49,930 nt of DNA from Clostridia bacterium (GTDB taxonomy: Bacteria; Bacillota; Clostridia; Oscillospirales; CAG-272). Of the stretch, positions 13,642 through 27,854 are shown in pieces. Position numbers and translations under genes: made by a program. The stretch is from positions 1 to 49,930 of the forward strand of contig JAFQPR010000028.1 of NCBI GenBank assembly GCA_017411605.1, in the 5' to 3' direction. Under the pieces are notes generated by a model that was not told where the DNA came from, did no database searches, and was given only the letters and a program-made list of their open reading frames with translations. Position 1 is the first letter of the stretch. The number at the start of each line of letters is the position of its first letter.

Positions 13642-13676
13642 ATACTTGTATTAATATATTTAAATAGGAGAACTCT

Positions 13677-16600
13677 ATGAAAAAATCTACGCTACTGAAT
13701 TTTCTTTGCGATTACGCTAAGAGTATTAGCGAGAGCTTTGGAAAAAGCGCGATAACCGCAGACCACTTTATGATCGCGGTACTCAAAACGATGTGCGATG
13801 ACCGCGACGGTAAGCTGCCCGCAGATATCCGTACGCCCGAGGTCAGCTTTGAGTTTTTAAAGATCAATACCTTACTTCACCATTATGATATCACGTTCGA
13901 CGACGTGATTGAAAAAATATCCGATGAGCTGAGATCGGAAGAATACAACTCATCAATGGACGAGTTTGTTTTCAGAAAAATAAAATACACCGCTGAGGCG
14001 GAGGCAATAATCAAGACGCGTGAAGAGGTCGATACGGTTGCTTATCTCGAGCTCATTATTAAAGAGCCTACCGATGCTATAAGCAAGCATATCATCTCCG
14101 CTACGTGCGTTGCGGAAACGCCTGCGGCAGAGGTTAAAAAGCCCGAGGAGCCTACTCCCGAGCCTGAGCCGACGCCTGTTGATTTCAGCACTCTCTTTGA
14201 TTTTGATTTTTCGTCCGACTCCGATAAAAAGGAAGAGCCCGCGGATGATCTGAGCGCTACGGAGCAGCTTTGCAAAACCGTTGAAACAACGAAGAAGATA
14301 CAGGAATTCTTGCTTGACCGAGTATTCGGTCAGGATCAGGCGGTAAACGCATTCGTTTCGGGATACTTCCAGTCAGAGATCCAGAGAGCTATGCGCAAGG
14401 ATACGAGAAAGCCTGCCGCAATGTTCCTCTTTGCGGGCCCTCCCGGTGTAGGTAAGACCTTCCTTGCCGAGACCGCTGCCGAGGCTCTTAAGCTTCCGTT
14501 CAGAAGATTCGATATGAGTGAATATTCCGAAAACGAGTCTAATATTGAGTTCTGCGGCTCGGATAAGGTGTATAAGAACGGTAAAGCGGGTAACGTTACA
14601 AGCTTTGTTGAGGAAAATCCCCGTTGCGTGCTTCTCTTTGACGAGATCGAAAAATCGCATATCAACGTAATTCATCTCTTCCTTCAGATGCTTGATGCGG
14701 GAAGACTTAGAGATAACTATACCGATACAGAGGTATCGTTTACCGATGCTATTATAATTTTCACGACCAACGTCGGAAGAAGCCTTTACGAGGATACCGA
14801 GATATCCAACCTTTCCGCTATTTCGAGAAAGAAGGTCATCAAGGCTATTGCCGAGGATAAGAATCCCTCAACGGGAGAAAAGCTTTTCCCCGCGGCTATC
14901 TGCTCGCGTCTTGCGTCCGGTCACGTCGTTATGTTTAACCGCCTTGGCGCAGGCAACCTTTATACTATCGTAAACCGTGAGCTCCAGAAGAGTGCAAAGG
15001 GCTTTGAGGATGCTATGGGTATAAAGATAAACGTGGACGAAAAGGTGTCTACCGCGCTTATCTTTTCCGAGGGCGGAAATGCCGATGCGAGAACGGTTAA
15101 GGGAAAGACGGGAACGTTCTTCCACGAGGAGCTCTATGAGTTCTTCAGACTCTTCGCGTCGGAAAAGCACGGCGGTGACGTTGAAAAGCTTAAGAGCATT
15201 AACGTTAAGGTTGAGTTTGACGAAAAGGACGTCGAGGTATCTAAGCTCTTCGTGAATAACGGCGAGCGCGAGATACTTGTATTTGCCGACGCGGATATGC
15301 GACGCGAATGCGAAAGAAAGCTTCGCGACGTCAGATGCTATTTTGCTGACACTATTGCGGAAGCAAAGGAGCTCTTATTCCAGCACGACGTATCCGCAAT
15401 TCTTTGCGACGTAAGCTGCGGAGCAAAGACCAATATCGAGGGACTTCTCAATGCCGAGGACGTTCAGTCCGTGGGCAGAGATTTCATCTCCTACGTTATT
15501 GAAAGATATCCGCTTCCGATATATATTCTCGAAGAAAATACGGGCGATATAAGCAAGGAAGAGCGTCTCTCGTTTATGAAGCTTGGCGCAAAGGATATAG
15601 TTACTATAAACAGCAAGCATTCGGCTTCGTTCGAGAACCGCGTTAAGTTCATCTGCGACGTTTCTTACCAGCAAGGTAATATGATAAAGCTTGCAAAAGC
15701 AAATAAGGTACTCACTTACAAGACCGCTCAGACGGTGTCCGCAGATCAGAAGACCGCAGATATCAAGCTCTTTGATCTTCGTCTTGAGATGGCTACGGAT
15801 ACCTCGGATTCGGGCAGCGTACTTGATAATATATCTAAGCCTAACGTTTTGTTTGAGGATGTTATAGGCGCTGAGGATGCTAAGGGTGAGCTCAAGTATT
15901 TCGTTGAATATCTTAAAAATCCCGCAGACTTTATGCGCCGCGGTGTGAGATCTCCGAAGGGTGTGCTCCTTTACGGCCCTCCCGGTACGGGTAAAACGCT
16001 TCTCGCCAAGGCTATGGCAGGTGAGTCCGACGTAACCTTCCTTACGGCTGAAGGAAATCAGTTCTTAAAGAGTCTTATAGGACAGGGAGCTGACGAGGTA
16101 CATAAGCTCTTCAACGCCGCAAGAAAGTATGCTCCGTCTATTCTCTTTATTGACGAGATAGATGCGATAGGTAAGGACAGAAGCTCCGCCCAGGTGGATA
16201 ACACAGGCGACGTGCTTACCGCATTCCTCACCGAGATGGACGGCTTCAAATCCGATACTTCAAAGCCCGTTTTCGTTCTCGCGGCTACAAACTATGAGGT
16301 TGAGCCCGGACGAGGAAAGAGCCTTGATCCCGCGCTTCTCAGAAGATTTGACAGAAGAATATACGTAGATCTTCCCAATAAGGAAGAGCGTAAGCGTTAT
16401 CTTAAGATGAAGATATCGAAGAACGGTAACGTTGCTCTCAGCGACGAGCAGATAGATAATATCGCTCTCCGTTCTACGGGTATGAGCCTTGCAGAGCTCG
16501 AAAACGTCTTTGAGATGGCGCTCAGAAACGCTATTCGCTCGGGCGGAACCGTTAACGACGAGTCGTTCGAGGAGGCGTTTGAAACCTTTAACAGCGGTGA

Positions 16601-17162
16601 AAAGAAGGAATGGGCTCCCGAAACTCTCCTTCGTACCGCGCGCCACGAGGCAGGTCATGCACTTCTTTCGTGGATATATGGCGATAAGCCCTCTTACCTT
16701 ACGATAGTTGCAAGAGGAAACCACGGCGGTTATATGCAGCACGGCGAGAGTGAGGATAAAGCGATCTATATGAAGTCCGAGCTTCTCTCGAAGATAAGGA
16801 CCGCTCTTGGCGGAAGAGCCGCAGAGCTTGTATATTACGGTGAGGATGACGGTGTTTCGACAGGGGCATCGGGAGATCTCTATACCGCTACCAAGACCTG
16901 CGAGCGAATGATTTGCAGCTACGGTATGGATGATGAATTCGGACTTTCTTACATTGATGAAAACTACACGGCAACCGACCTTGCAAAGGATATCAGAGCA
17001 AGAATAAACTCTGTTCTTGAGGCTGAGCTTGCGAATGCTCGCGAGGTTATTTTGTCCCAGAGCGAGGCTATGGATAATATCGTCAGAGTCCTTATGGATA
17101 AGAATCACCTCAAGGGTGACGAGATCGATGAGATCTTCAGAAAATACGTAAAAAGAAAATAA
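13677..17162 (+). CDS. Clp-like AAA+ / receiver-like / FtsH-like AAA+-M41 protease chimera
   Basis: This 1161-residue protein has several modules. Residues 1-145 resemble a Clp N-terminal helical domain; 146-192 form a Pro/Glu/Asp-rich linker. Residues 205-480 are a ClpA/ClpB-D2-like AAA+ module: Walker A GPPGVGKT 254-261, Walker B VLLFDE 318-323, sensor-1 N365, arginine-finger candidate R411 and sensor-2 candidate R472. Residues 530-670 look like a receiver domain with acidic pair D538/D540 and D578 in the phospho-acceptor place, but the conserved Lys near the end is not evident. Residues 725-970 are FtsH-like AAA+: GPPGTGKT 767-774 and Walker B 822-827. The C-terminus is an M41 zinc protease with HEAGH at 990-994 and third ligand D1067. 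I see no membrane helices, unlike ordinary FtsH. The FtsH pore aromatic (FVG) reads LIG at 800-802. The start has a strong AGGAG SD. A YbjN-like gene follows by 28 nt. It is likely a soluble unfoldase-protease; substrates are unknown. Confidence 0.85.
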   Translation: MKKSTLLNFLCDYAKSISESFGKSAITADHFMIAVLKTMCDDRDGKLPADIRTPEVSFEFLKINTLLHHYDITFDDVIEKISDELRSEEYNSSMDEFVFRKIKYTAEAEAIIKTREEVDTVAYLELIIKEPTDAISKHIISATCVAETPAAEVKKPEEPTPEPEPTPVDFSTLFDFDFSSDSDKKEEPADDLSATEQLCKTVETTKKIQEFLLDRVFGQDQAVNAFVSGYFQSEIQRAMRKDTRKPAAMFLFAGPPGVGKTFLAETAAEALKLPFRRFDMSEYSENESNIEFCGSDKVYKNGKAGNVTSFVEENPRCVLLFDEIEKSHINVIHLFLQMLDAGRLRDNYTDTEVSFTDAIIIFTTNVGRSLYEDTEISNLSAISRKKVIKAIAEDKNPSTGEKLFPAAICSRLASGHVVMFNRLGAGNLYTIVNRELQKSAKGFEDAMGIKINVDEKVSTALIFSEGGNADARTVKGKTGTFFHEELYEFFRLFASEKHGGDVEKLKSINVKVEFDEKDVEVSKLFVNNGEREILVFADADMRRECERKLRDVRCYFADTIAEAKELLFQHDVSAILCDVSCGAKTNIEGLLNAEDVQSVGRDFISYVIERYPLPIYILEENTGDISKEERLSFMKLGAKDIVTINSKHSASFENRVKFICDVSYQQGNMIKLAKANKVLTYKTAQTVSADQKTADIKLFDLRLEMATDTSDSGSVLDNISKPNVLFEDVIGAEDAKGELKYFVEYLKNPADFMRRGVRSPKGVLLYGPPGTGKTLLAKAMAGESDVTFLTAEGNQFLKSLIGQGADEVHKLFNAARKYAPSILFIDEIDAIGKDRSSAQVDNTGDVLTAFLTEMDGFKSDTSKPVFVLAATNYEVEPGRGKSLDPALLRRFDRRIYVDLPNKEERKRYLKMKISKNGNVALSDEQIDNIALRSTGMSLAELENVFEMALRNAIRSGGTVNDESFEEAFETFNSGEKKEWAPETLLRTARHEAGHALLSWIYGDKPSYLTIVARGNHGGYMQHGESEDKAIYMKSELLSKIRTALGGRAAELVYYGEDDGVSTGASGDLYTATKTCERMICSYGMDDEFGLSYIDENYTATDLAKDIRARINSVLEAELANAREVILSQSEAMDNIVRVLMDKNHLKGDEIDEIFRKYVKRK

Positions 17163-17190
17163 ATAAAATTATAAACGGAGGATTTTAGTT

Positions 17191-17670
17191 ATGGCAGATT
17201 TAGACATGAAAAAGGCAAGAGAAGTATACGCTTCTCTCATCAGTATGCTTGATAGCATCAACTGGAGCTATGAAAAGGAAGAAGAAAAGCTCATTATCAG
17301 AAGCGGAGTAAACGGTGACGACCTTCCCGTAGAGTTCCTCGTTGTTGTAAATCCCAAAAATGAGGTAGTTCAGTTCATTTCTCAGCTTCCCTTCAACGCT
17401 CCCGAGGATAAGAGAATAGATCTCTCTATCGCTGTAAACGTTGCTAACTGGGGACTTTGCGACGGTTCGTTCGATTACAACGTAACCGACGGAAGAATTA
17501 TTTTCCGTATGACCTCAAGCTACCGCGAGAGCGTTCTCGGTGAGGAGCTCTTCAAGTACCTTATCATGGTTGCGGCTTCGACCGTTGACAGATACAATGA
17601 TAAGTTCTTTATGATATCCAAGGGAATGATCTCTATCCAGCAGTTCATTCAGCAGGAAAACGAAGACTAA
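17191..17670 (+). CDS. YbjN domain protein
   Basis: This 159-residue acidic, soluble protein fits the YbjN family. The fold resembles type III secretion chaperones, and members are often small adaptors or stress-response proteins of unclear mechanism. Visible features are an N-terminal helix (KKAREVYASLISMLD), a central beta region (EFLVVVNPKNEVVQFISQLP), the segment AVNVANWGLCDGSFDYN and a C-terminal helical end. It starts 28 nt after the protease chimera with an excellent GGAGG SD. It shares that gene's promoter and is followed by a terminator. A role as adaptor or chaperone for the upstream chimera is plausible but inferred only from context. Confidence 0.75.
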   Translation: MADLDMKKAREVYASLISMLDSINWSYEKEEEKLIIRSGVNGDDLPVEFLVVVNPKNEVVQFISQLPFNAPEDKRIDLSIAVNVANWGLCDGSFDYNVTDGRIIFRMTSSYRESVLGEELFKYLIMVAASTVDRYNDKFFMISKGMISIQQFIQQENED

Positions 17671-17790: not shown

Positions 17791-19221
17791 TTACTTGTAA
17801 TTGGTAACGTCACCTGCATCAAAGGTGATATCAACCGTCACCTCGATGCCACCTCTGAGTACAACGAGCGTTAGCGTGTCACCTACTCTCAGATCGAGGG
17901 AAATATCGATAAGATGATGATTGCGCGTTATCGGCTTTGTTTTTCCGTTTAGCATGGCGCTCAAGATGATATCGTCGGCAAAAAGAAGACCCTCTGCGGC
18001 GCTGCCCTCGTTAACGGTCAATATTTTAGTGCTTTCCGAAATTTCAATTTTACCCGTTTCGGTATTAAATGCTGCTTTTGAGTCGGTAGGTATTATGGAA
18101 ATACCCATCATAACGCGCTGCACGGTCTTGAGCTCCGTACCCACGCAATTGTCGATTATATTATCCGCAACGGCTCTGGCAACGTTTGAGGGGATGGCAT
18201 AACCGATGTTATCAACCGTGTCGTCCTCGAGTTTTGCGCTGACGATACCTATGACCTCACCGCGGTCATTGAATAGGGGACCGCCACTGTTTCCGTGGTT
18301 TACCGAAGTATCTATTCTTATAACTCTTCTTGATACCTGACCCGTGCCGTCGGCAAGATTCATCGCGATATCCTCCGAATCAACGCTGATAATGCCTGAG
18401 GTTGCGGATATGCATAAGCCTTCCGCATTTCCTATTGCGATAGAGGTTTCACCTACGGATACCGTATCCGAGTCGGCAAGCGTGCAGCTTGAGGGGAATT
18501 CATCGCGAAGGGCATCGCAGCCCTCGACGTAGAGTACAGCTATATCGTAGTTCATTGAGCCGCCGACGTACGTGGCAGGGAAGCTTTGCTCGGCGTATTC
18601 CGAGCCATAGAGATATACTTTGATATTGTCGCTTATCTTGTCTGCAGTGTTACATTCGGCATCATAAACTACGTGATGGTTAGTTATTATATACGCGTTT
18701 CCGGCTTCGTCATCAAGCTTATAGATAACGCCGGAGCCTTCTGATGCATAGTCTGTAACGGTAGTACCCGTGTAAATATTATATACGGTTTTCTTGTAAT
18801 GAGATTCGATGCTGACAGTGCTTCGAAGACCTTTAGCTATCGCCGCCGCAACAGCGGTGTCGTCAGTGTTGATATTTAAGGAAATATCAACGGTTCCGTC
18901 TTCGCCGTCACTTCCGTCCCGTCCATCTTCACCGTCTTCACCGTCTTTGCCGTCTTTACCGTTTTTGCCATCTTCTCCGTCTTTTCCGTTTTCACCGGGA
19001 GCACCGTCCTTGCCGTTCGCACCGTCTTTACCGTCAGCCCCGACGACTACACCGAGATTTTTCTCGCTTCCGTCGGAAAACTTGATAATAAGCTCTCCGT
19101 TATCGTTTATTTCCGCATCGAGAGCATCGGCTGAATTTGCAGCGGTACATCCCGAAAGGATAAGTGCCAAAACAACAGTTAAGCACAAAGCCAGAGTAAA
19201 TAAAACTGTTTTCTTTTTCAT
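17791..19221 (-). CDS. HtrA-like trypsin/PDZ lipoprotein with collagen-like stalk
   Basis: This 476-residue protein begins with a lipoprotein signal peptide (KKK, hydrophobic core, lipobox LSGC with Cys25). Residues 61-109 are 16 uninterrupted Gly-X-Y triplets, mostly GKD, GED and GAP type, resembling a collagen-like stalk. A trypsin-like serine protease domain of the HtrA/DegP type follows. The triad is visible: H183 (TNHHVV), D226 (NYDIAV) and S312 (GNSGGP). The C-terminal 100 residues fit a single PDZ domain. ATG 19221 is preferred over a GTG at 19230 because GGTG of the SD lies 7-10 nt upstream. The likely location is the outer face of the membrane, where it would degrade misfolded envelope proteins. 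Whether the Gly-X-Y segment trimerises is unknown. Confidence 0.88.
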   Translation of the reverse strand: MKKKTVLFTLALCLTVVLALILSGCTAANSADALDAEINDNGELIIKFSDGSEKNLGVVVGADGKDGANGKDGAPGENGKDGEDGKNGKDGKDGEDGEDGRDGSDGEDGTVDISLNINTDDTAVAAAIAKGLRSTVSIESHYKKTVYNIYTGTTVTDYASEGSGVIYKLDDEAGNAYIITNHHVVYDAECNTADKISDNIKVYLYGSEYAEQSFPATYVGGSMNYDIAVLYVEGCDALRDEFPSSCTLADSDTVSVGETSIAIGNAEGLCISATSGIISVDSEDIAMNLADGTGQVSRRVIRIDTSVNHGNSGGPLFNDRGEVIGIVSAKLEDDTVDNIGYAIPSNVARAVADNIIDNCVGTELKTVQRVMMGISIIPTDSKAAFNTETGKIEISESTKILTVNEGSAAEGLLFADDIILSAMLNGKTKPITRNHHLIDISLDLRVGDTLTLVVLRGGIEVTVDITFDAGDVTNYK

Positions 19222-19315
19222 AAATATCACCGACCTTTGGTTTTCTTTATAAGGATTCTAGCATCATCTGCTTAAAAAAGATTAAATACAACAGATAAGA
19301 AGGGATACCGTGTTA

Positions 19316-20913: not shown

Positions 20914-23427
20914 TTATGATTTTGGATTACCCGCGGTATCCGAGCCGTCACCCGTAAGTCCGAGGCGCTTTGCGGCATCCTCTCGCATTTTATACTTGAG
21001 GACCTTTCCTGCGGCATTCATCGGGAATGACGTTACGAATTCGATATACTTCGGAACCTTATGGCGAGCCAAGCTTGCCTTGATGTAGTTTGTCATTTCC
21101 TCGACGGTAACGCTACCGGGATTTTTGAGAATGATGCAAGCCATGATCTCTTCGCCGTATTTCCGGTCGGGAACACCGATTACCTGTACGTCCTTCGTTT
21201 GGGGGTGAGTATAAATAAATTCCTCTATCTCTTTGGGGTAAATATTTTCACCGCCTCGTATGATCATATCCTTAAGACGTCCCGTAATCTTATAGTTGCC
21301 AAACTCATCACGTGATGCAAGGTCGCCCGAATGAAGCCATCCGTCTTCGTCTATCGTGCCCTTTGTTGCCATAGGCATCTTGTAGTATCCCTTCATCGTG
21401 TTGTATCCCTTGGCGCAGAATTCACCGTTAACGCCGGGACCGACCTCTTCGCCCGTTTCGGGATCAACGATCTTGCAACGAACGTGGGGAAACGCATAGC
21501 CGACGGTTTCGGTACGTACCTCGAGAGAGTCCGTCCACGAGCTCATAGTGTTACCGGGAGCGCATTCGGTCTGACCGTAAACGCTGACGATTCCCGTCAT
21601 ATTCATCTCGTCGGGACTTGCCGCGCGGCGCATAAGCTCGGGAGGGCATCCTGCGCCTGCCATAATACCCGTTCTCATATGCGAGAAATCGGTGCTGCGG
21701 TAGTTCGGATGGTTAAACATTGCTATGAACATCGTAGGAACACCGTTGAAGCAGGTTATCTTTTCCTGGTTAATGCAGGCAAGCGAGGATTTTGCGGAGA
21801 AATAAGGCATAGGACACATCGTTGTTCCGTGAGTCATAGATGACGTCATTGATAACGTCATACCGAAGCAGTGGAACATAGGTACGTGTATCATCATACG
21901 GTCAGCCGTGGAGAGTCCCATACGGTCACCGATGCATTTTCCATTGTTGATAACGTTATAGTGAGTGAGCATAACGCCCTTTGGGAAGCCTGTTGTTCCC
22001 GAGGTGTACTGCATATTGCAAACGTCGGAAGGGCGCACTGCCGCTGCCATCTTTGCAACCTCTTCGGAGCTTACGAGCTTGTATCTTGCCATAGCCTCAT
22101 CAAAGGTAAGGCATCCGGGCTGCTTGAAGCCTACTGTTATAACATTGCGTAAGAAGGGAAGCTTTTTCGAGTGAAGAGGCTCGCCAGGTACGGTATCCTT
22201 GATTTCAGGGCAGAGCGTGTTAATAATATCACGGTAATTTGAGTCAAGGCAGCTATCTATCATAACGAGAGTATGAGTGTCCGACTGACGGAGAAGATAT
22301 TCTGCCTCGTGAATTTTATACGCGGTATTTACCGTAACGAGAACCGCGCCAAGCTTTGTTGTTGCCCAGAAGGTAATGTACCACGCGGGAAGATTTGTTG
22401 CCCAAACCGCAACCTTAGAGCCTGCCTTCACTCCGAGAGACACGAGTGCTCTCGCGAAGCGGTCTACGTCCTCTCTGAACTCGGCATAGGTACGCGTATA
22501 GTCAAGAGTTGTATATTTGAAGCAATACTGGTCGGGTATCTCATCGGCAACGCGGTCGAGCACTTGAGAAAAGGTAAGATCGATAAGCTCATCCTTCTTC
22601 CAGATGTACTGTCCCGTACCGTCGTGATTATAGTAAAGCTGCTTTTTCATATCCCTTGTGGAGCTAAAACGTGACATATAGTTTACAAAATAAGGGAAAA
22701 TGATCTCGGGATCCTGAAGATCATCGAGCCATTCGGGCTTCCATTCAAGAGAAATAAATTCGTCGTAATTGACCGAAGAAAGCGCTCGCATCACGTCAGC
22801 GATAGGCATAGTTCCTTCGCCGATAAGCTGATATGTTCCGCTGTCATCGGAATCTCGCATATGAACGTGGCGCACGTAACAGCCGAGATTTTTTATCGTA
22901 TCGTCACTTGATTCGCCGTTGTCGCGGTAAGGATGATGGATATCCCAAAGTACCGCGAGGTTATCGCTCGCAAATCTGTCAAGCATATTTCGGAGCCTTG
23001 CCGTATCCGAATATATTCCGCTGGTTTTTACAAGTACGGTTACGTCGAGCTTTACTGCTATAGGTAAAAGAGTGCTGAGTACCGAATAAACGGTATCCTC
23101 GTCATCACTCAGCGCGCAAACGACAACGTAAGGAACGCGCGCGTTGTGCGCTGTTTCTAAAAGAGGAATAATAGTATCGGTAACAGATTTATCTGCCGAT
23201 ATATCGCAGGACGTATCAAAGCAAGGCACGGTAAGCTGTTTTTCACGGAGATTACGCGCGGTTGCTGCGGTATTGTATTTATGGAAGGGACCTCCGCGGT
23301 CTGTAAGGCTTGCAAAGTTGGGAAGGTTATAAACCTCTACTCCCGAAAAACCCATCTCGATTGCGGTTTCGAGCATTTCATCCCATGAAAGACCCGGCCA
23401 TCCTCTTGTGGAAAAGGAGAGCTTCAT
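20914..23427 (-). CDS. TIM-barrel isomerase-like / acyl-CoA synthetase fusion
   Basis: This 837-residue protein fuses two enzyme folds. Residues 1-250 match the AP endonuclease 2/xylose-isomerase-like TIM barrel, with metal-ligand candidates E31, D162, H164, H187/H189 and E228 retained. Residues 275-825 are an ANL-superfamily AMP-forming ligase. Its P-loop is YTSGTTGFPKG (474-484), with a typical GQTE motif, a SGDLA hinge region and the AGKVLKYK lysine motif near the C-terminus. It would activate a carboxylic acid to an acyl-adenylate and then a CoA thioester. It overlaps the upstream LeuA-like gene by 4 nt (ATGA), so the two are translationally coupled. Both lie behind a minus-strand T-box. 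The pairing of these two folds in one chain is unusual to me, and the barrel's substrate is unknown. Confidence 0.85.
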   Translation of the reverse strand: MKLSFSTRGWPGLSWDEMLETAIEMGFSGVEVYNLPNFASLTDRGGPFHKYNTAATARNLREKQLTVPCFDTSCDISADKSVTDTIIPLLETAHNARVPYVVVCALSDDEDTVYSVLSTLLPIAVKLDVTVLVKTSGIYSDTARLRNMLDRFASDNLAVLWDIHHPYRDNGESSDDTIKNLGCYVRHVHMRDSDDSGTYQLIGEGTMPIADVMRALSSVNYDEFISLEWKPEWLDDLQDPEIIFPYFVNYMSRFSSTRDMKKQLYYNHDGTGQYIWKKDELIDLTFSQVLDRVADEIPDQYCFKYTTLDYTRTYAEFREDVDRFARALVSLGVKAGSKVAVWATNLPAWYITFWATTKLGAVLVTVNTAYKIHEAEYLLRQSDTHTLVMIDSCLDSNYRDIINTLCPEIKDTVPGEPLHSKKLPFLRNVITVGFKQPGCLTFDEAMARYKLVSSEEVAKMAAAVRPSDVCNMQYTSGTTGFPKGVMLTHYNVINNGKCIGDRMGLSTADRMMIHVPMFHCFGMTLSMTSSMTHGTTMCPMPYFSAKSSLACINQEKITCFNGVPTMFIAMFNHPNYRSTDFSHMRTGIMAGAGCPPELMRRAASPDEMNMTGIVSVYGQTECAPGNTMSSWTDSLEVRTETVGYAFPHVRCKIVDPETGEEVGPGVNGEFCAKGYNTMKGYYKMPMATKGTIDEDGWLHSGDLASRDEFGNYKITGRLKDMIIRGGENIYPKEIEEFIYTHPQTKDVQVIGVPDRKYGEEIMACIILKNPGSVTVEEMTNYIKASLARHKVPKYIEFVTSFPMNAAGKVLKYKMREDAAKRLGLTGDGSDTAGNPKS

Positions 23428-24830
23428 TCTACTTCCTCCTCATAAATTATTTTATTAAGTGCTGAAAGGTATGCCTGTATTCCCGCACCGACGATATCGG
23501 TGGAGATACCTCTGCCCGAGTATACCTTTGCGCCTGAGCGAAGCTTAACTACGGTCTGACCCATAGCCTCTCTGCCCTCGGTAACAGCCTGTAGCTGAAA
23601 GTCGTCAAGCTCGTAGTGGCAGCCCGTGATCTTTTCGATAGCCTGGAATGCCGCGTCTATCGAGCCGTCGCCGATATACACACCCTCGGTTGGCTGACCG
23701 TTTTTAGTAAGCTTTATGTGCGCGGTTGCGGAAATGGTATTACCCGAGGTGATAACGTAGGTGTCGAGCTTATATGTAGGGGGGACCTGCATGGCGGACG
23801 ATGCAACTATGGCATCAAGCTCCTTGAGTCCTACCTTTTCCTTCTTTTCGGCTATCTGGCAAAATGCGTTATAAACCTTTATTCCGTCATCTTCGGAAAG
23901 GTCGTAACCCAGCTTTTTGACGGCAAGAGTAACTGCGTTTATATCATCATGCGCGGTAAGGAAAATATCGGAATCCCCGTGTTCCGAAGAGTTTGATATC
24001 GTACCCTTTTTGCTGGGCTGGCACACCCAGTTGACCTGGTCTATAATTCTTGTGAGCTGTGTTGTTCTGATATTGCAGTAAGCATCAAGCGCATCGGATT
24101 TCGCGGAAATAATACGCGCGATATTAGCAAGCGACGCGGAGTTTATCGGATATGCCGCCGCGCGAATCTGACCCGCTCCGTTCGCGACTGCAGCGATAGC
24201 GCAGGCATCCGCCATAGATATAGCGTTCGAGGTGCAGATACCGAGAGTAACGTTTTTAAGCTCGGGAAGCTTCTCATACTGCAAGCTGATAAAGTTTGAA
24301 AACTCTGCGGGAAGCATCGAACCTGCTGTGTCGCAAACCGTAACCGTGGTTGCGCCCGCATCAATTGCGGTTTTAAGAGCTAAGGTCAGATAAGACTGCT
24401 CGCTTCTCGTAGCATCGCCGGCTATGAATTCAACATCGGAGCAAAGCGATGCGCATTTTTCTACGGCGGAGCGTATAGCTTCTATCATCGAGTCCGGCTT
24501 TTTGCGGTAAAGATATTCCACCTGCACGGCACTTGTGGGAGCGGATACCTGGAGTCGAGGCCTCCTCGCCTCCTTAAGCGCGCACCATGTATTCTCAATG
24601 CTCTCATTATTTAATTCAACGGGTACCGCTATAATGCTGTCCTGTATAGCTGCGGCAACCGATTTTATTCGGAGTGAATCGATGCGAGCGTCTGATATGC
24701 CCTCAAGCTCAATAACGTCTGCTCCGAGCTTATCAAGCAGCTTTGAAAATTCGATTTTTTCCTTAAAGGATAGTCGGAAGTCCTCGGATATCTGCTTCAT
24801 TGTTGCATCGCTGATCTTTACCTGTTTCAT
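23424..24830 (-). CDS. LeuA-like protein with degenerate catalytic site and intact regulatory domain
   Basis: This 468-residue protein aligns along its length with isopropylmalate/citramalate synthases: an HMGL-like barrel at about 1-270, a linker, then a LeuA allosteric domain at about 350-460. Key residues are missing. The family RDGEQ motif reads SDATM (7-11), keeping only the Asp. The HCHND metal site reads ICTSN (198-202). The NGIGERAGN segment is replaced by AAYPINSAS. The later HESGIH segment is also not recognisable. The C-terminal domain, which binds the end-product amino acid in LeuA, looks intact (VYIGDGSIDAAFQAI, GRGISTDIVGAGIQAYL). It is probably a pseudoenzyme or an enzyme with changed chemistry, perhaps a leucine-like sensor. 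ATG 24830 has a good AAGGAGAG SD and lies just downstream of a T-box. Confidence 0.82.
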   Translation of the reverse strand: MKQVKISDATMKQISEDFRLSFKEKIEFSKLLDKLGADVIELEGISDARIDSLRIKSVAAAIQDSIIAVPVELNNESIENTWCALKEARRPRLQVSAPTSAVQVEYLYRKKPDSMIEAIRSAVEKCASLCSDVEFIAGDATRSEQSYLTLALKTAIDAGATTVTVCDTAGSMLPAEFSNFISLQYEKLPELKNVTLGICTSNAISMADACAIAAVANGAGQIRAAAYPINSASLANIARIISAKSDALDAYCNIRTTQLTRIIDQVNWVCQPSKKGTISNSSEHGDSDIFLTAHDDINAVTLAVKKLGYDLSEDDGIKVYNAFCQIAEKKEKVGLKELDAIVASSAMQVPPTYKLDTYVITSGNTISATAHIKLTKNGQPTEGVYIGDGSIDAAFQAIEKITGCHYELDDFQLQAVTEGREAMGQTVVKLRSGAKVYSGRGISTDIVGAGIQAYLSALNKIIYEEEVE

Positions 24831-25586: not shown

Positions 25587-27854
25587 ATGACTAATCAGTC
25601 CGATACAAATCATTTAAAGAGGATAGCTCTTCGAATTCGTGATATGCGTGAAATTCTCGGATATACAACTTCGCGTATGGCGGAGCTTACGGATCTTGAC
25701 GAAGAGACTTATCTTTCCTATGAATCGGGAACGGTCGATCTGCCGTTTACCTTTATGCATAAATGCGCACAGGTGTACGGTATTGAGATTACCGATATTC
25801 TCGAGGGACACAGCGCAAAGCTGAGCGGTTATACCATTACCCGTAAGGGAAAGGGGCTTACCACCGCAAGTGAGGACGGTATTACGATTCAGGACATGGC
25901 TCCTCTTTTCCGTCATAAGCTTGCAACGCCCTATTGGGTAACCTACGAATATTCCGAGGAGCTTCAAAAGCTCCCTATTAATACAGTAACGCACTCGGGA
26001 CAGGAGTTTGACCTTGTGCTTAAGGGCTCAATGCGTATCCGTATAGGGGACCGCGAGGAGGTCTTGCGCGAGGGTGACAGTGTATTCTTTAAATCCTCGA
26101 CTCCTCACGGAATGATCGCGATTGACGGCAAGGACTGCGTATTTCTTGCAATGGTTATGGCAAGTGATAGCACCGATCAGCCTATGATTATTCGCGGCGC
26201 AGAGCACGCGACAGCACATAGACCTCTGCTTTGCGAGAAATTCATCAAGGCTGAGGAAGATGAGAATGGAGTTCTTCTTGGTGTTAATTATACTAATGAA
26301 GACAAGTACAATTTTGCTTTCGATACTGTTGATGAGATAGCAAGGAAGAATCCCGAGAAGCTCGCGATGGTACATATCGCAAACGATATGACTGAACGTA
26401 GATTTACCTTCAAGGATATTAAGGATGCGTCGAGCCAGAGCGCAAACTACTTCAAATCGCTCGGCATCAAGCGCGGTGACAGAGTTATGCTCGTCTTGAA
26501 GCGCCACTATCAGTTCTGGTTCGCGATCCTCGGACTTCATAAGCTCGGCGCAATAGCCATCCCTGCGACAAATCAGCTCGTTGAGCATGATTTCAGCTAC
26601 AGATTTACGGCTGCGGGCGTCAGCGCTATTCTTTGTACCGCCGACGGAGATACTGCAAATCAGGTGGATCTCGCTGAAAAGAACTGCGGTATGTCGCTTA
26701 CCAAGATAATGGTAGGAGGAGAAAAGCCCGGCTGGCATAACTATGACAATGAGTACGGTCTTTTCAGCCGCAGATACGTTCGTGAGGAGGATGCTCCTTG
26801 CGGAAACGATCCTATGCTTATGCTGTTCACCTCGGGAACAACAGGTTATCCGAAAATGGCAATGCACTCTTATAAGTATGCTCTCGGTCATTACGTAACC
26901 GCTAAATATTGGCATCTTTGTGAGACCGACGGACTTCACTTTACTATTTCCGAAACCGGTTGGGGTAAAGCGCTCTGGGGTAAGCTTTACGGTCAGTGGC
27001 TCTGCGAGGGCGCGGTATTTACGTACGATTTCGACAGATTTGACTCATCGAAGATACTTCCTATGTTTGCGAAGTATAAAATTACTACCTTCTGCGCGCC
27101 GCCTACTATGTACAGAATGCTTATAAAGCAGGATCTCAGTAAGTACGATCTCTCGTCTATACACCACGCTACTACTGCAGGTGAGGCGCTTAACCCCGAG
27201 GTATTCTATCAGTTTGAGAAGGCTACAGGTCTTCGTATAGCAGAGGGCTTCGGACAAACGGAGATGACGCTCGGTATCGCAAATCTTCTCGGAACTCAGC
27301 TTAAGCCCGGCGCTATGGGTAAGCCCGTTCCCGGATACGGTATTGATATCGTTGATATGGACGGTAATCCCGTTGCCGACGGTGTTAACGGTGAGATAGT
27401 TATACGCACGGAGCCTAAGACCTCGTGCGGAGTATTCCTCGGTTATTACCGTAACGAGGAGGCAACGAAAAACGTATGGCACGACGGAATGTACCACACC
27501 GGTGACCTTGCGTGGCGTGATGAGGACGGCTATTATTGGTACGTAGGACGTACAGATGACGTTATCAAGTCCTCGGGCTACAGAATAGGTCCGTTCGAGA
27601 TAGAGTCCACCATAATGGAGCTTCCTTACGTTCTTGAGTGCGGAGTTTGCGCCGCACCCGATGAGGTAAGAGGTCAGGTCGTTAAGGCTTGCATCGTTCT
27701 CGTTGCGGGGACAGAGGGCACAGAGGAGCTGAAAAAAGATATACAGAACTATGTAAAACTTCACACGGCTCCCTATAAATATCCGAGAATCGTCGAATTC
27801 CGCAAGGAATTGCCTAAGACGATAAGCGGTAAGATAATGAGAAACAAACTTTAA
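25587..27854 (+). CDS. HTH-cupin-acyl-CoA synthetase fusion, copy 1
   Basis: This 755-residue protein fuses a regulator to an enzyme. Residues 13-70 are an XRE-type helix-turn-helix. Residues 115-190 are a cupin domain (THSGQEFDLVLKG, GDSVFF...TPHGM). Residues 225-755 are an AMP-forming acyl-CoA synthetase nearest to the medium-chain ACSM type. The P-loop is LFTSGTTGYPK at 413-423; the core also shows a TGWGKALWGKLYGQWL segment, GQTE, YHTGDLAW and the catalytic Lys in ISGKIM. The likely substrates are short or branched carboxylic acids. The start has a strong AAAAGGAGG SD and is controlled by the T-box upstream. HTH-cupin regulators normally sense small molecules. Here the sensor and the ligase share one chain, so the enzyme may repress or activate genes according to substrate load; this is inference. 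Confidence 0.88.
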   Translation: MTNQSDTNHLKRIALRIRDMREILGYTTSRMAELTDLDEETYLSYESGTVDLPFTFMHKCAQVYGIEITDILEGHSAKLSGYTITRKGKGLTTASEDGITIQDMAPLFRHKLATPYWVTYEYSEELQKLPINTVTHSGQEFDLVLKGSMRIRIGDREEVLREGDSVFFKSSTPHGMIAIDGKDCVFLAMVMASDSTDQPMIIRGAEHATAHRPLLCEKFIKAEEDENGVLLGVNYTNEDKYNFAFDTVDEIARKNPEKLAMVHIANDMTERRFTFKDIKDASSQSANYFKSLGIKRGDRVMLVLKRHYQFWFAILGLHKLGAIAIPATNQLVEHDFSYRFTAAGVSAILCTADGDTANQVDLAEKNCGMSLTKIMVGGEKPGWHNYDNEYGLFSRRYVREEDAPCGNDPMLMLFTSGTTGYPKMAMHSYKYALGHYVTAKYWHLCETDGLHFTISETGWGKALWGKLYGQWLCEGAVFTYDFDRFDSSKILPMFAKYKITTFCAPPTMYRMLIKQDLSKYDLSSIHHATTAGEALNPEVFYQFEKATGLRIAEGFGQTEMTLGIANLLGTQLKPGAMGKPVPGYGIDIVDMDGNPVADGVNGEIVIRTEPKTSCGVFLGYYRNEEATKNVWHDGMYHTGDLAWRDEDGYYWYVGRTDDVIKSSGYRIGPFEIESTIMELPYVLECGVCAAPDEVRGQVVKACIVLVAGTEGTEELKKDIQNYVKLHTAPYKYPRIVEFRKELPKTISGKIMRNKL

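What the first reader, a model, noticed from the sequence alone, without database searches (positions are those of the whole stretch)
13677..17162. Soluble chimera of a Clp-type AAA+ unfoldase, a degenerate receiver-like domain and an FtsH-type AAA+/M41 protease
One 1161-residue chain holds two full AAA+ modules of different families (Walker A at 254-261 and 767-774), a receiver-like domain between them and an intact HEAGH zinc-protease site at 990-994. Ordinary FtsH is membrane-anchored with one AAA+ module; here I see no membrane helix. The FtsH pore aromatic reads LIG and the usual ALLRPGRFDR reads ALLRRFDR, so substrate handling may differ. I know of no described protease with this layout, which could be a two-engine machine. 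Novelty is judged from memory only.
Basis: partly seen in the sequence, partly recalled or inferred. Interest (0 to 1): 0.9.

Follow-up and report, generated by a model that had tools for sequence, protein, structure and literature searches.

The report
Two-motor soluble protease of gut bacteria
A gut bacterium carries one long protein that joins two different ATP-driven unfolding motors and a zinc protease; the same protein occurs sporadically in related gut bacteria, often together with genes that look like immune signalling parts, so it may be the core of an undescribed defence or stress machine.

Summary
Window 13677-17162 is one intact 1161-aa ORF: Clp-N-like domain, ClpA-D2-like AAA+ module, receiver-fold domain, FtsH-type AAA+ module, M41 zinc protease, no predicted membrane helix. 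It is not an assembly join: I count 46 distinct loci for the chimera, where named from gut Clostridia metagenomes. In the 37 aligned, both ATPase sites, their arginine fingers and the zinc ligands are invariant. All 37 read RRF where FtsH has RPGRF; the "LIG" pore is local (30 of 37 keep an aromatic). The receiver keeps its aspartate (37 of 37) but never the lysine, so it is a pseudo-receiver.

New here: the gene is accessory (13 of 345 genomes of its order) and travels with a recurring gene set: YbjN (next gene here), a membrane TrkA-like/RyR protein, a Card1-like CARF nuclease, TIR proteins. The TrkA/RyR gene is in 21 of 25 chimera genomes and 2 of 55 without. This genome has TrkA/RyR and Card1-like genes side by side on another contig.

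Best reading: a soluble two-ring ATP-dependent protease, probably the proteolytic arm of an undescribed signalling or defence module. Function is untested.

The parts
13677..17162 (+). Chimera gene, 1161 aa: two-AAA+ M41 protease
   Evidence: relatives
13666..13670 (+). AGGAG, ribosome-binding-like site of the chimera
   Evidence: sequence printed
13677..14096 (+). Residues 1-140: Clp-N-like helical domain
   Evidence: hhalign to 5 Clp N domains, probability 83.7; all-helical in model; Pfam finds nothing here
14103..14246 (+). Residues 143-190: acidic, proline-rich linker, predicted disordered (pLDDT under 50)
14274..15176 (+). Residues 200-500: first AAA+ module, ClpA-D2-like (Walker A 254-261, Walker B 318-323, pore Tyr 299, sensor-1 N365, Arg finger R411, sensor-2 R472)
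   Evidence: Pfam AAA_2; NCBIfam ClpA 203-502; residue counts (motif roles recalled)
15270..15698 (+). Residues 532-674: receiver-fold domain, phosphoacceptor-position D578, family insert with LNxEDVxS (N592, D595, S598)
15705..15791 (+). Residues 677-705: beta hairpin between receiver and second AAA+ module
15834..16601 (+). Residues 720-975: FtsH-type AAA+ module (Walker A 767-774, Walker B D826 E827, pore L800-I801-G802, sensor-1 N872, R889-R890)
16632..17135 (+). Residues 986-1153: M41 zinc protease, HEAGH 990-994, third ligand position D1067
   Evidence: invariance (third ligand recalled from FtsH)
17191..17670 (+). YbjN-like protein, 159 aa, 28 bases after the chimera, GGAGG at 17177-17181; predicted partner or adaptor
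   Evidence: Pfam YbjN 34 bits, cut-off 22; linkage; site

Best explanation
A soluble, self-contained ATP-dependent zinc protease with two stacked motor rings. Shown: one chain carries a Clp-N-like domain, a ClpA-D2-like AAA+ module, a pseudo-receiver, an FtsH-like AAA+ module and an M41 protease; the residues for ATP hydrolysis in both modules and the zinc ligands are invariant in the family; there is no membrane helix. Inferred: six copies stack; the N domain, with YbjN as adaptor, captures a substrate; the Clp-like ring pulls with its pore tyrosine; the chain passes a collar of receiver domains (a gate controlled by ligand or partner, not by phosphorylation) into the FtsH ring and is cut in the M41 chamber, so ClpP is not needed. 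Inferred at lower confidence: the protease is the proteolytic arm of an accessory signalling module, most likely defence or stress, whose other parts are a membrane TrkA-like/RyR protein, a Card1-like CARF nuclease, YbjN peptide-binding proteins and TIR proteins. It would either destroy an inhibitor to switch these on or clear the alarm protein to switch them off.
For: Domains and motifs. Conservation in 37 of 37: K260, D322, E323, N365, R411, R472, K773, D826, E827, N872, R889, R890, H990, E991, H994, D1067; pore Tyr or Phe of ring 1 in 35 of 37 (2 gaps). No IGF/IGL-type ClpP-docking motif between N365 and R411 in 0 of 37. Single family: 37 chimeras on one side of a branch against 5 FtsH (100/100) and against 3 Clp modules (100/99); pairwise identities of the four domains correlate at r 0.83-0.89. 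Linkage: TrkA/RyR gene 21 of 25 chimera genomes against 2 of 55 without; YbjN 15 of 25 against 2 of 55; Card1-like 10 of 25 against 5 of 55 (Fisher p 3e-13, 5e-8, 0.002); within the window's genus TrkA/RyR 6 of 8 against 5 of 53 (p 2e-4). In 29 of 41 loci at least one of these genes lies in the same run of genes.
Against: No activity, hexamer or interaction was shown; pTM of the whole model is 0.58, so the ring stacking is not predicted with confidence. In this window the only linked partner is YbjN; the neighbours after it (trypsin/collagen protein, nitroreductase-like and hydrolase-like ORFs) are not defence genes. 9 of 41 loci have none of the six linked families within 6 kb. No model of YbjN, TrkA/RyR or RyR protein exists in PADLOC (0 hits). 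The TrkA label is weak (one of four proteins tested passes Pfam's cut-off: L034 yes, L098 below, L031 and L056 none). No cyclase or signal-making enzyme other than TIR proteins was seen. No chimera was found in viral contigs, plasmids or phages (the last two with the receiver region only), so a mobile-element carrier is not shown.
Confidence: 0.6

Rival explanations
1. A soluble quality-control protease: the same two-ring machine, but serving general turnover of damaged proteins, with no immune role. The linked genes are co-located only because accessory genes gather at the same variable sites.
For: YbjN relatives are tied to stress and protein stabilisation (PMC5398634 passages; PMC3575483 abstract). 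Clp-N domains and pore loops suit general unfolding. In the window the gene sits behind rpoB-rpoC, beside ordinary genes.
Against: Presence in only 13 of 345 genomes of the order is unlike a quality-control enzyme; the genome has its own membrane FtsH and several Clp ATPases. Co-occurrence with the TrkA/RyR gene holds even where the genes lie on different contigs (this genome), which shared hot spots explain less well.
Confidence: 0.25
2. An ATP-driven remodeller in which the protease matures or trims one partner (for example the membrane TrkA/RyR protein or the nuclease) rather than degrading substrates processively.
For: Gene pairs chimera-TrkA/RyR are often 6-62 bases apart on one strand; the second-ring loop is changed (RRF in 37 of 37) and this protein has no pore aromatic.
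Against: Both rings keep all ATPase residues and most relatives keep the pore aromatic (30 of 37), as expected for processive pulling.
Confidence: 0.1
3. Artefact: two neighbouring genes joined by misassembly or a frame error.
For: The genome is a draft of 104 contigs, 81.8% complete.
Against: The same layout in 46 distinct loci from independent assemblies, identities 33-62% to the window protein within the 37 aligned; domain trees and identities agree.
Confidence: 0.01

Closest known systems
FtsH / M41 AAA+ proteases (E. coli FtsH, YME1L, AFG3L2)
   Same: Second AAA+ module plus M41 domain, HEAGH and third Asp; best solved relatives by sequence and fold
   Different: No membrane anchor; an additional Clp-type ring, Clp-N domain and receiver in front; RRF in place of RPGRF in 37 of 37; 365 bits against the 600-bit cut-off
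ClpA/ClpC/ClpE (Hsp100) unfoldases
   Same: Clp-N-like domain and D2-type AAA+ module with pore tyrosine, Arg finger and sensor 2
   Different: No first (D1) AAA+ module; no ClpP-docking motif (0 of 37); carries its own protease
FtsH ternary systems of Kaur et al. 2020 (PMC7159879; passages seen)
   Same: A two-AAA+ FtsH-type protein within a proposed conflict system; ClpN domains appear elsewhere in the same systems
   Different: There both AAA+ modules are FtsH-type and the first is inactive, with MoxR and vWA partners; here the first is Clp-type and intact, with an M41 protease and other partners
Card1/Can2-type CARF nucleases and CARF-protease effectors of type III CRISPR (CalpL recalled)
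   Same: A Card1-like CARF nuclease is a recurring partner (PADLOC CARF4--CARF_PDDEXK E 3e-34)
   Different: The chimera has no CARF domain that any search found; no Cas10 or CRISPR part was searched for or seen
ARG-centred ADP-ribose systems with YbjN-superfamily chaperones (Iyer et al. 2022, PMC9503650; passages and section 3.8 seen)
   Same: YbjN-type peptide-binding proteins beside nucleases; one chimera locus has an ADP-ribosylglycohydrolase gene next to it (L059)
   Different: No AAA+ protease, FtsH, RyR or TrkA mention in that paper (0 occurrences)

Membership tests
FtsH (M41) proteases | FtsH-type AAA+ module with Walker A/B and arginine fingers | tested here: met
   K773, D826, E827, R889, R890 in 37 of 37
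FtsH (M41) proteases | M41 zinc protease with HEXXH and third Asp ligand | tested here: met
   Peptidase_M41 111 bits; H990, E991, H994, D1067 in 37 of 37
FtsH (M41) proteases | N-terminal membrane anchor | tested here: not met
   19-residue hydropathy at most 1.62 in 37 sequences against 3.14 in own FtsH
FtsH (M41) proteases | Curated equivalog cut-off (600 bits) and RPGRFD loop | tested here: not met
   365 bits; RPGRF in 0 of 37, present as RPGRF or RAGRF in 5 of 5 FtsH compared
Clp/Hsp100 unfoldases | D2-type AAA_2 module with pore aromatic, Arg finger, sensor 2 | tested here: met
Clp/Hsp100 unfoldases | Clp N domain | tested here: met
   only by profile comparison, probability 83.7; Pfam itself finds nothing
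Clp/Hsp100 unfoldases | D1 AAA+ module (class I) and ClpP-docking loop | tested here: not met
   one Clp-type module only; [ILVM]G[FL] in 0 of 37
Response-regulator receivers | (beta-alpha)5 fold | tested here: met
Response-regulator receivers | Phosphoacceptor Asp | tested here: met
   D578 in 37 of 37
Response-regulator receivers | Acidic pair, Thr/Ser and Lys of the active site | tested here: not met
   first acid 0 of 37, second 18 of 37, T/S 3 of 37, Lys 0 of 37, (positions from the alignment)
Anti-phage defence systems | Protects a host from phage | not testable with these tools
   only gene linkage
FtsH ternary conflict systems (Kaur 2020) | Two FtsH-type AAA+ modules, first inactive, with MoxR and vWA genes | tested here: not met
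   first module is Clp-type with intact Walker residues; MoxR and vWA not seen among the neighbours scanned with Pfam

The most novel reading that the evidence does not exclude
A soluble two-engine protease, with a Clp-type ring feeding an FtsH-type ring and its own zinc chamber, is the executive core of an undescribed immune module that uses NAD-derived or nucleotide signals (TIR proteins, RyR domains, CARF nuclease) and a pseudo-receiver gate between the rings to decide when to destroy its target.
Probability: 0.35. Interest if true: 0.92.

Novelty: new variant of a known kind. Interest (0 to 1): 0.75.

Why it matters
FtsH is taught as a membrane protease with a weak single motor, and Clp as a strong unfoldase that must borrow ClpP. 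A natural fusion of the two, in one soluble chain with a gate-like domain between the motors, makes the question of how two unlike AAA+ rings hand over a substrate directly testable in one purified protein. If the linkage with TIR, RyR, CARF-nuclease and YbjN genes is functional, it adds an ATP-dependent protease to bacterial nucleotide-signalling immunity in a lineage (gut Clostridia) where few such systems have been tested.

Tried and rejected
Assembly join or pseudogene: rejected (46 loci, invariant active sites). ClpP partner: rejected for the family by the missing docking motif; one locus, L046, does have a clpP gene two genes downstream, which I cannot explain. Receiver as a working phosphorelay domain: not supported. 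The first residue counts for the receiver's Thr/Ser position were one column off; one search replaces them. LIG pore as a family trait: rejected. Reading the system as the published FtsH ternary system: rejected. Known defence system by PADLOC: the chimera's hits (IetA, DolB, PDC-M37B and others) are AAA+ domain matches, not whole-protein matches. The four-gene NAPRTase neighbourhood (cluster 5) recurs in 4 loci (L019, L021, L037, L047) that are two records each fetched twice, so it was not counted as a partner. A second look with VIA-align was not available. CARF superfamily review (10.1093/nar/gkaa635) is not held.

Weak points of the linkage test: the 25 chimera genomes came from three searches and 8 are of one genus; the 55 others were taken by running handle number (G241-G297 without the two positives) as genomes without a match, which I infer from the order of handles; the tree of relatedness was not corrected for, apart from the same-genus test. 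The family labels come from profiles seeded and enlarged from the loci themselves; TIR labels in L056 and the 110-aa piece of L040 were not checked with Pfam. From I left out 4 copies of the same record (L065, L068, L104, L110), the broken copy L071, and L042 (ORF hidden by a longer reverse ORF in my ORF picker); L075, L078, L079 and L081 were not fetched with wide flanks. The RyR match of the TrkA/RyR C-terminus (probability 95) had no shuffle control. One Clp sequence (L006) dropped out of the Clp tree because my motif search missed it, and that tree's bootstrap had not settled.
Full report
What is there. Window 13677-17162 on the + strand is a single ORF of 1161 codons, with AGGAG 6 bases before the ATG and a YbjN-family gene starting 28 bases after its stop, preceded by GGAGG. 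It lies behind rpoB and rpoC (identified by me from the translations) and before a reverse-strand trypsin-like gene. Pfam places AAA_2 at 246-385, AAA at 763-898 and Peptidase_M41 at 986-1153; NCBIfam matches ClpA from 203 to 502 and FtsH from 718 to 1150, both far below the curated cut-offs. The closest solved structures by sequence are FtsH over 720-1157 (274 bits); by fold also FtsH (E 1.4e-30).

The two regions that Pfam does not name were tested by profile and fold. Residues 1-145 of 31 relatives, as a profile, match five Clp N domains with probability 83.7 and score 36.1; the best of 20 column shuffles scores 8.1. Residues 527-712 of 37 relatives match four receivers of the same genome with probability 95.4 and score 48.1; shuffles reach 11.4. 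The predicted structure of that piece (pLDDT 90.8, pTM 0.81) finds almost only receiver and response-regulator entries among the 50 PDB matches listed. The aspartate of the receiver is invariant (37 of 37), but the first acid is absent (0 of 37), the second is acidic in 18, Thr/Ser stands in 3 and Lys in 0 of 37. A family-specific insert, LNxEDVxS, is nearly invariant (N592 34, D595 36, S598 36 of 37). This looks like a pseudo-receiver that binds something other than a phosphoryl group; that is inference.

Is it real and old? Searches found it in 7 of 146 genomes of the same family, 11 of 98 close relatives, 13 of 345 genomes of the order, 2 of 341 of the class and 2 of 348 of the phylum, this genome included each time, at E 1e-100 or 1e-110. 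A scan of named genomes gave 23 loci with a chimera among 29 listed; the other six match one module only. Their titles name gut metagenomes of cattle, sheep, goats, deer, horse and rabbit among others, labelled Clostridia, Oscillospiraceae, Christensenellaceae or Ruminococcaceae. After removing records fetched twice I count 46 distinct loci; two of these (L079, L081) are incomplete in the match, and L014 and L024 lack most of the N-terminal part. All 37 aligned chimeras fall on one side of a branch against five FtsH (support 100/100) and against three Clp modules (100/99, bootstrap not settled). Identities of the four domains correlate at 0.83 to 0.89 over all pairs. So the fusion is a single, diversified family.

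Mechanism. In 37 of 37 the residues for nucleotide binding and hydrolysis are kept in both modules, with arginine fingers (R411; R889 and R890), and so are both histidines, the glutamate and the third aspartate of the zinc site (roles recalled). The pore tyrosine of the first module is Y in 33 and F in 2 of 37 with 2 gaps. The second pore position is aromatic in 30 of 37; this protein has L. FtsH's RPGRF loop is RRF in 37 of 37; four of five FtsH compared have RPGRF and one RAGRF. No ClpP-docking motif is found (0 of 37), and no membrane helix. The simplest machine is a soluble hexamer of two rings that ends in its own zinc chamber. The rings were not modelled; the monomer model has pLDDT 82.8 but pTM 0.58.

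Surroundings. In 41 distinct loci examined, at least one of six linked families lies in the same run of genes (same strand, gaps at most 200 bases) in 29, and within 6 kb in 32: YbjN 15 and 16, the membrane TrkA-like/RyR protein 10 and 11, a Card1-like nuclease 7 and 9, short RyR proteins 4 and 4, TIR proteins 4 and 5 (a second TIR profile 0 and 1). Pfam and PADLOC back the names: Card1_endonuc and CARF4--CARF_PDDEXK, RyR 126 bits, TIR_2 in five proteins. The TrkA label is weak, and the RyR label of that protein rests on a profile match of its C-terminus.

Linkage beyond neighbourhood. Of 25 genomes with the chimera and 55 of the same order without, the TrkA/RyR gene is in 21 and 2, YbjN in 15 and 2, the Card1-like gene in 10 and 5. 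In the window's genus the TrkA/RyR gene is in 6 of 8 with and 5 of 53 without. This genome has TrkA/RyR (788 aa) and the Card1-like nuclease (406 aa) in tandem on contig C25, 31 bases apart, while the chimera and YbjN are on C15. Five genomes of the same genera as chimera genomes but without it (G246, G257, G259, G266, G290) have none of the three.

What this suggests. YbjN proteins share the fold of secretion chaperones that hold extended chains (PMC5398634, passages; PMC3575483, abstract) and have been proposed as peptide-binding chaperones in ADP-ribose-related conflict systems (PMC9503650, section 3.8). An adaptor role for YbjN at the Clp-N domain is therefore a fair guess. Card1-like nucleases, TIR and RyR domains point to nucleotide or NAD-derived signals. 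I read the chimera as the proteolytic arm of such a module, with moderate confidence. A plain quality-control role stays possible.

Known or new. The nine paper searches listed nothing with this layout; the nearest published idea is the FtsH ternary system of PMC7159879 (passages), which differs in both modules and partners. The kinds of parts are known; the machine is a new variant, and the gene set may be a new system.

Noticed in passing
17791-19230 (-): Trypsin-like protease (Trypsin_2) with collagen-type Gly-X-Y repeats in one chain, a secreted or lipoprotein-like protein by its start.
   Followed up: no
20914-23427 (-): 837-aa fusion of a xylose-isomerase-like TIM barrel and an AMP-binding enzyme, next to a LeuA-like enzyme at 23424-24830; the same pair lies 3.5 kb beyond the chimera in L034, so two genomes share this neighbourhood with different chimera partners.
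   Followed up: partly
25587-27854 (+): 755-aa protein with helix-turn-helix-like start, cupin and AMP-binding enzyme in one chain.
   Followed up: no
L098:7112-10730 (own genome, contig C25): TrkA-like/RyR membrane protein (788 aa) and Card1-like nuclease (406 aa) in tandem, 31 bases apart, unlinked to the window.
   Followed up: yes
L071:583-5483: A second chimera copy in one genome is broken: ORFs of 278 and 314 aa match residues 1-270 and 850-1150 only, behind a TrkA/RyR gene and a NERD-domain gene.
   Followed up: partly
L046:11358-12556: A phosphoesterase gene and a ClpP gene follow the chimera directly in one genome, although the chimera lacks a ClpP-docking motif.
   Followed up: no
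L059:11377-14594: ADP-ribosylglycohydrolase gene and a TIR-TPR gene directly upstream of a chimera that is followed by TrkA/RyR and RyR genes.
   Followed up: partly
L034:4863-14311: Dense cluster: Card1-like nuclease, TrkA/RyR, chimera, tubulin-like/TIR, RyR and a second TIR gene.
   Followed up: partly
L005:715-3321: 869-aa protein of this genome with one Clp-type AAA+ module and a long unrelated N-terminal part; not a standard ClpC or ClpE.
   Followed up: no
L014, L025, L026: A divergent branch of chimeras (33-35% identity) with other neighbours: a small protein of about 135 aa directly upstream in L025 and L026, a 394-aa protein directly downstream in L014.
   Followed up: no
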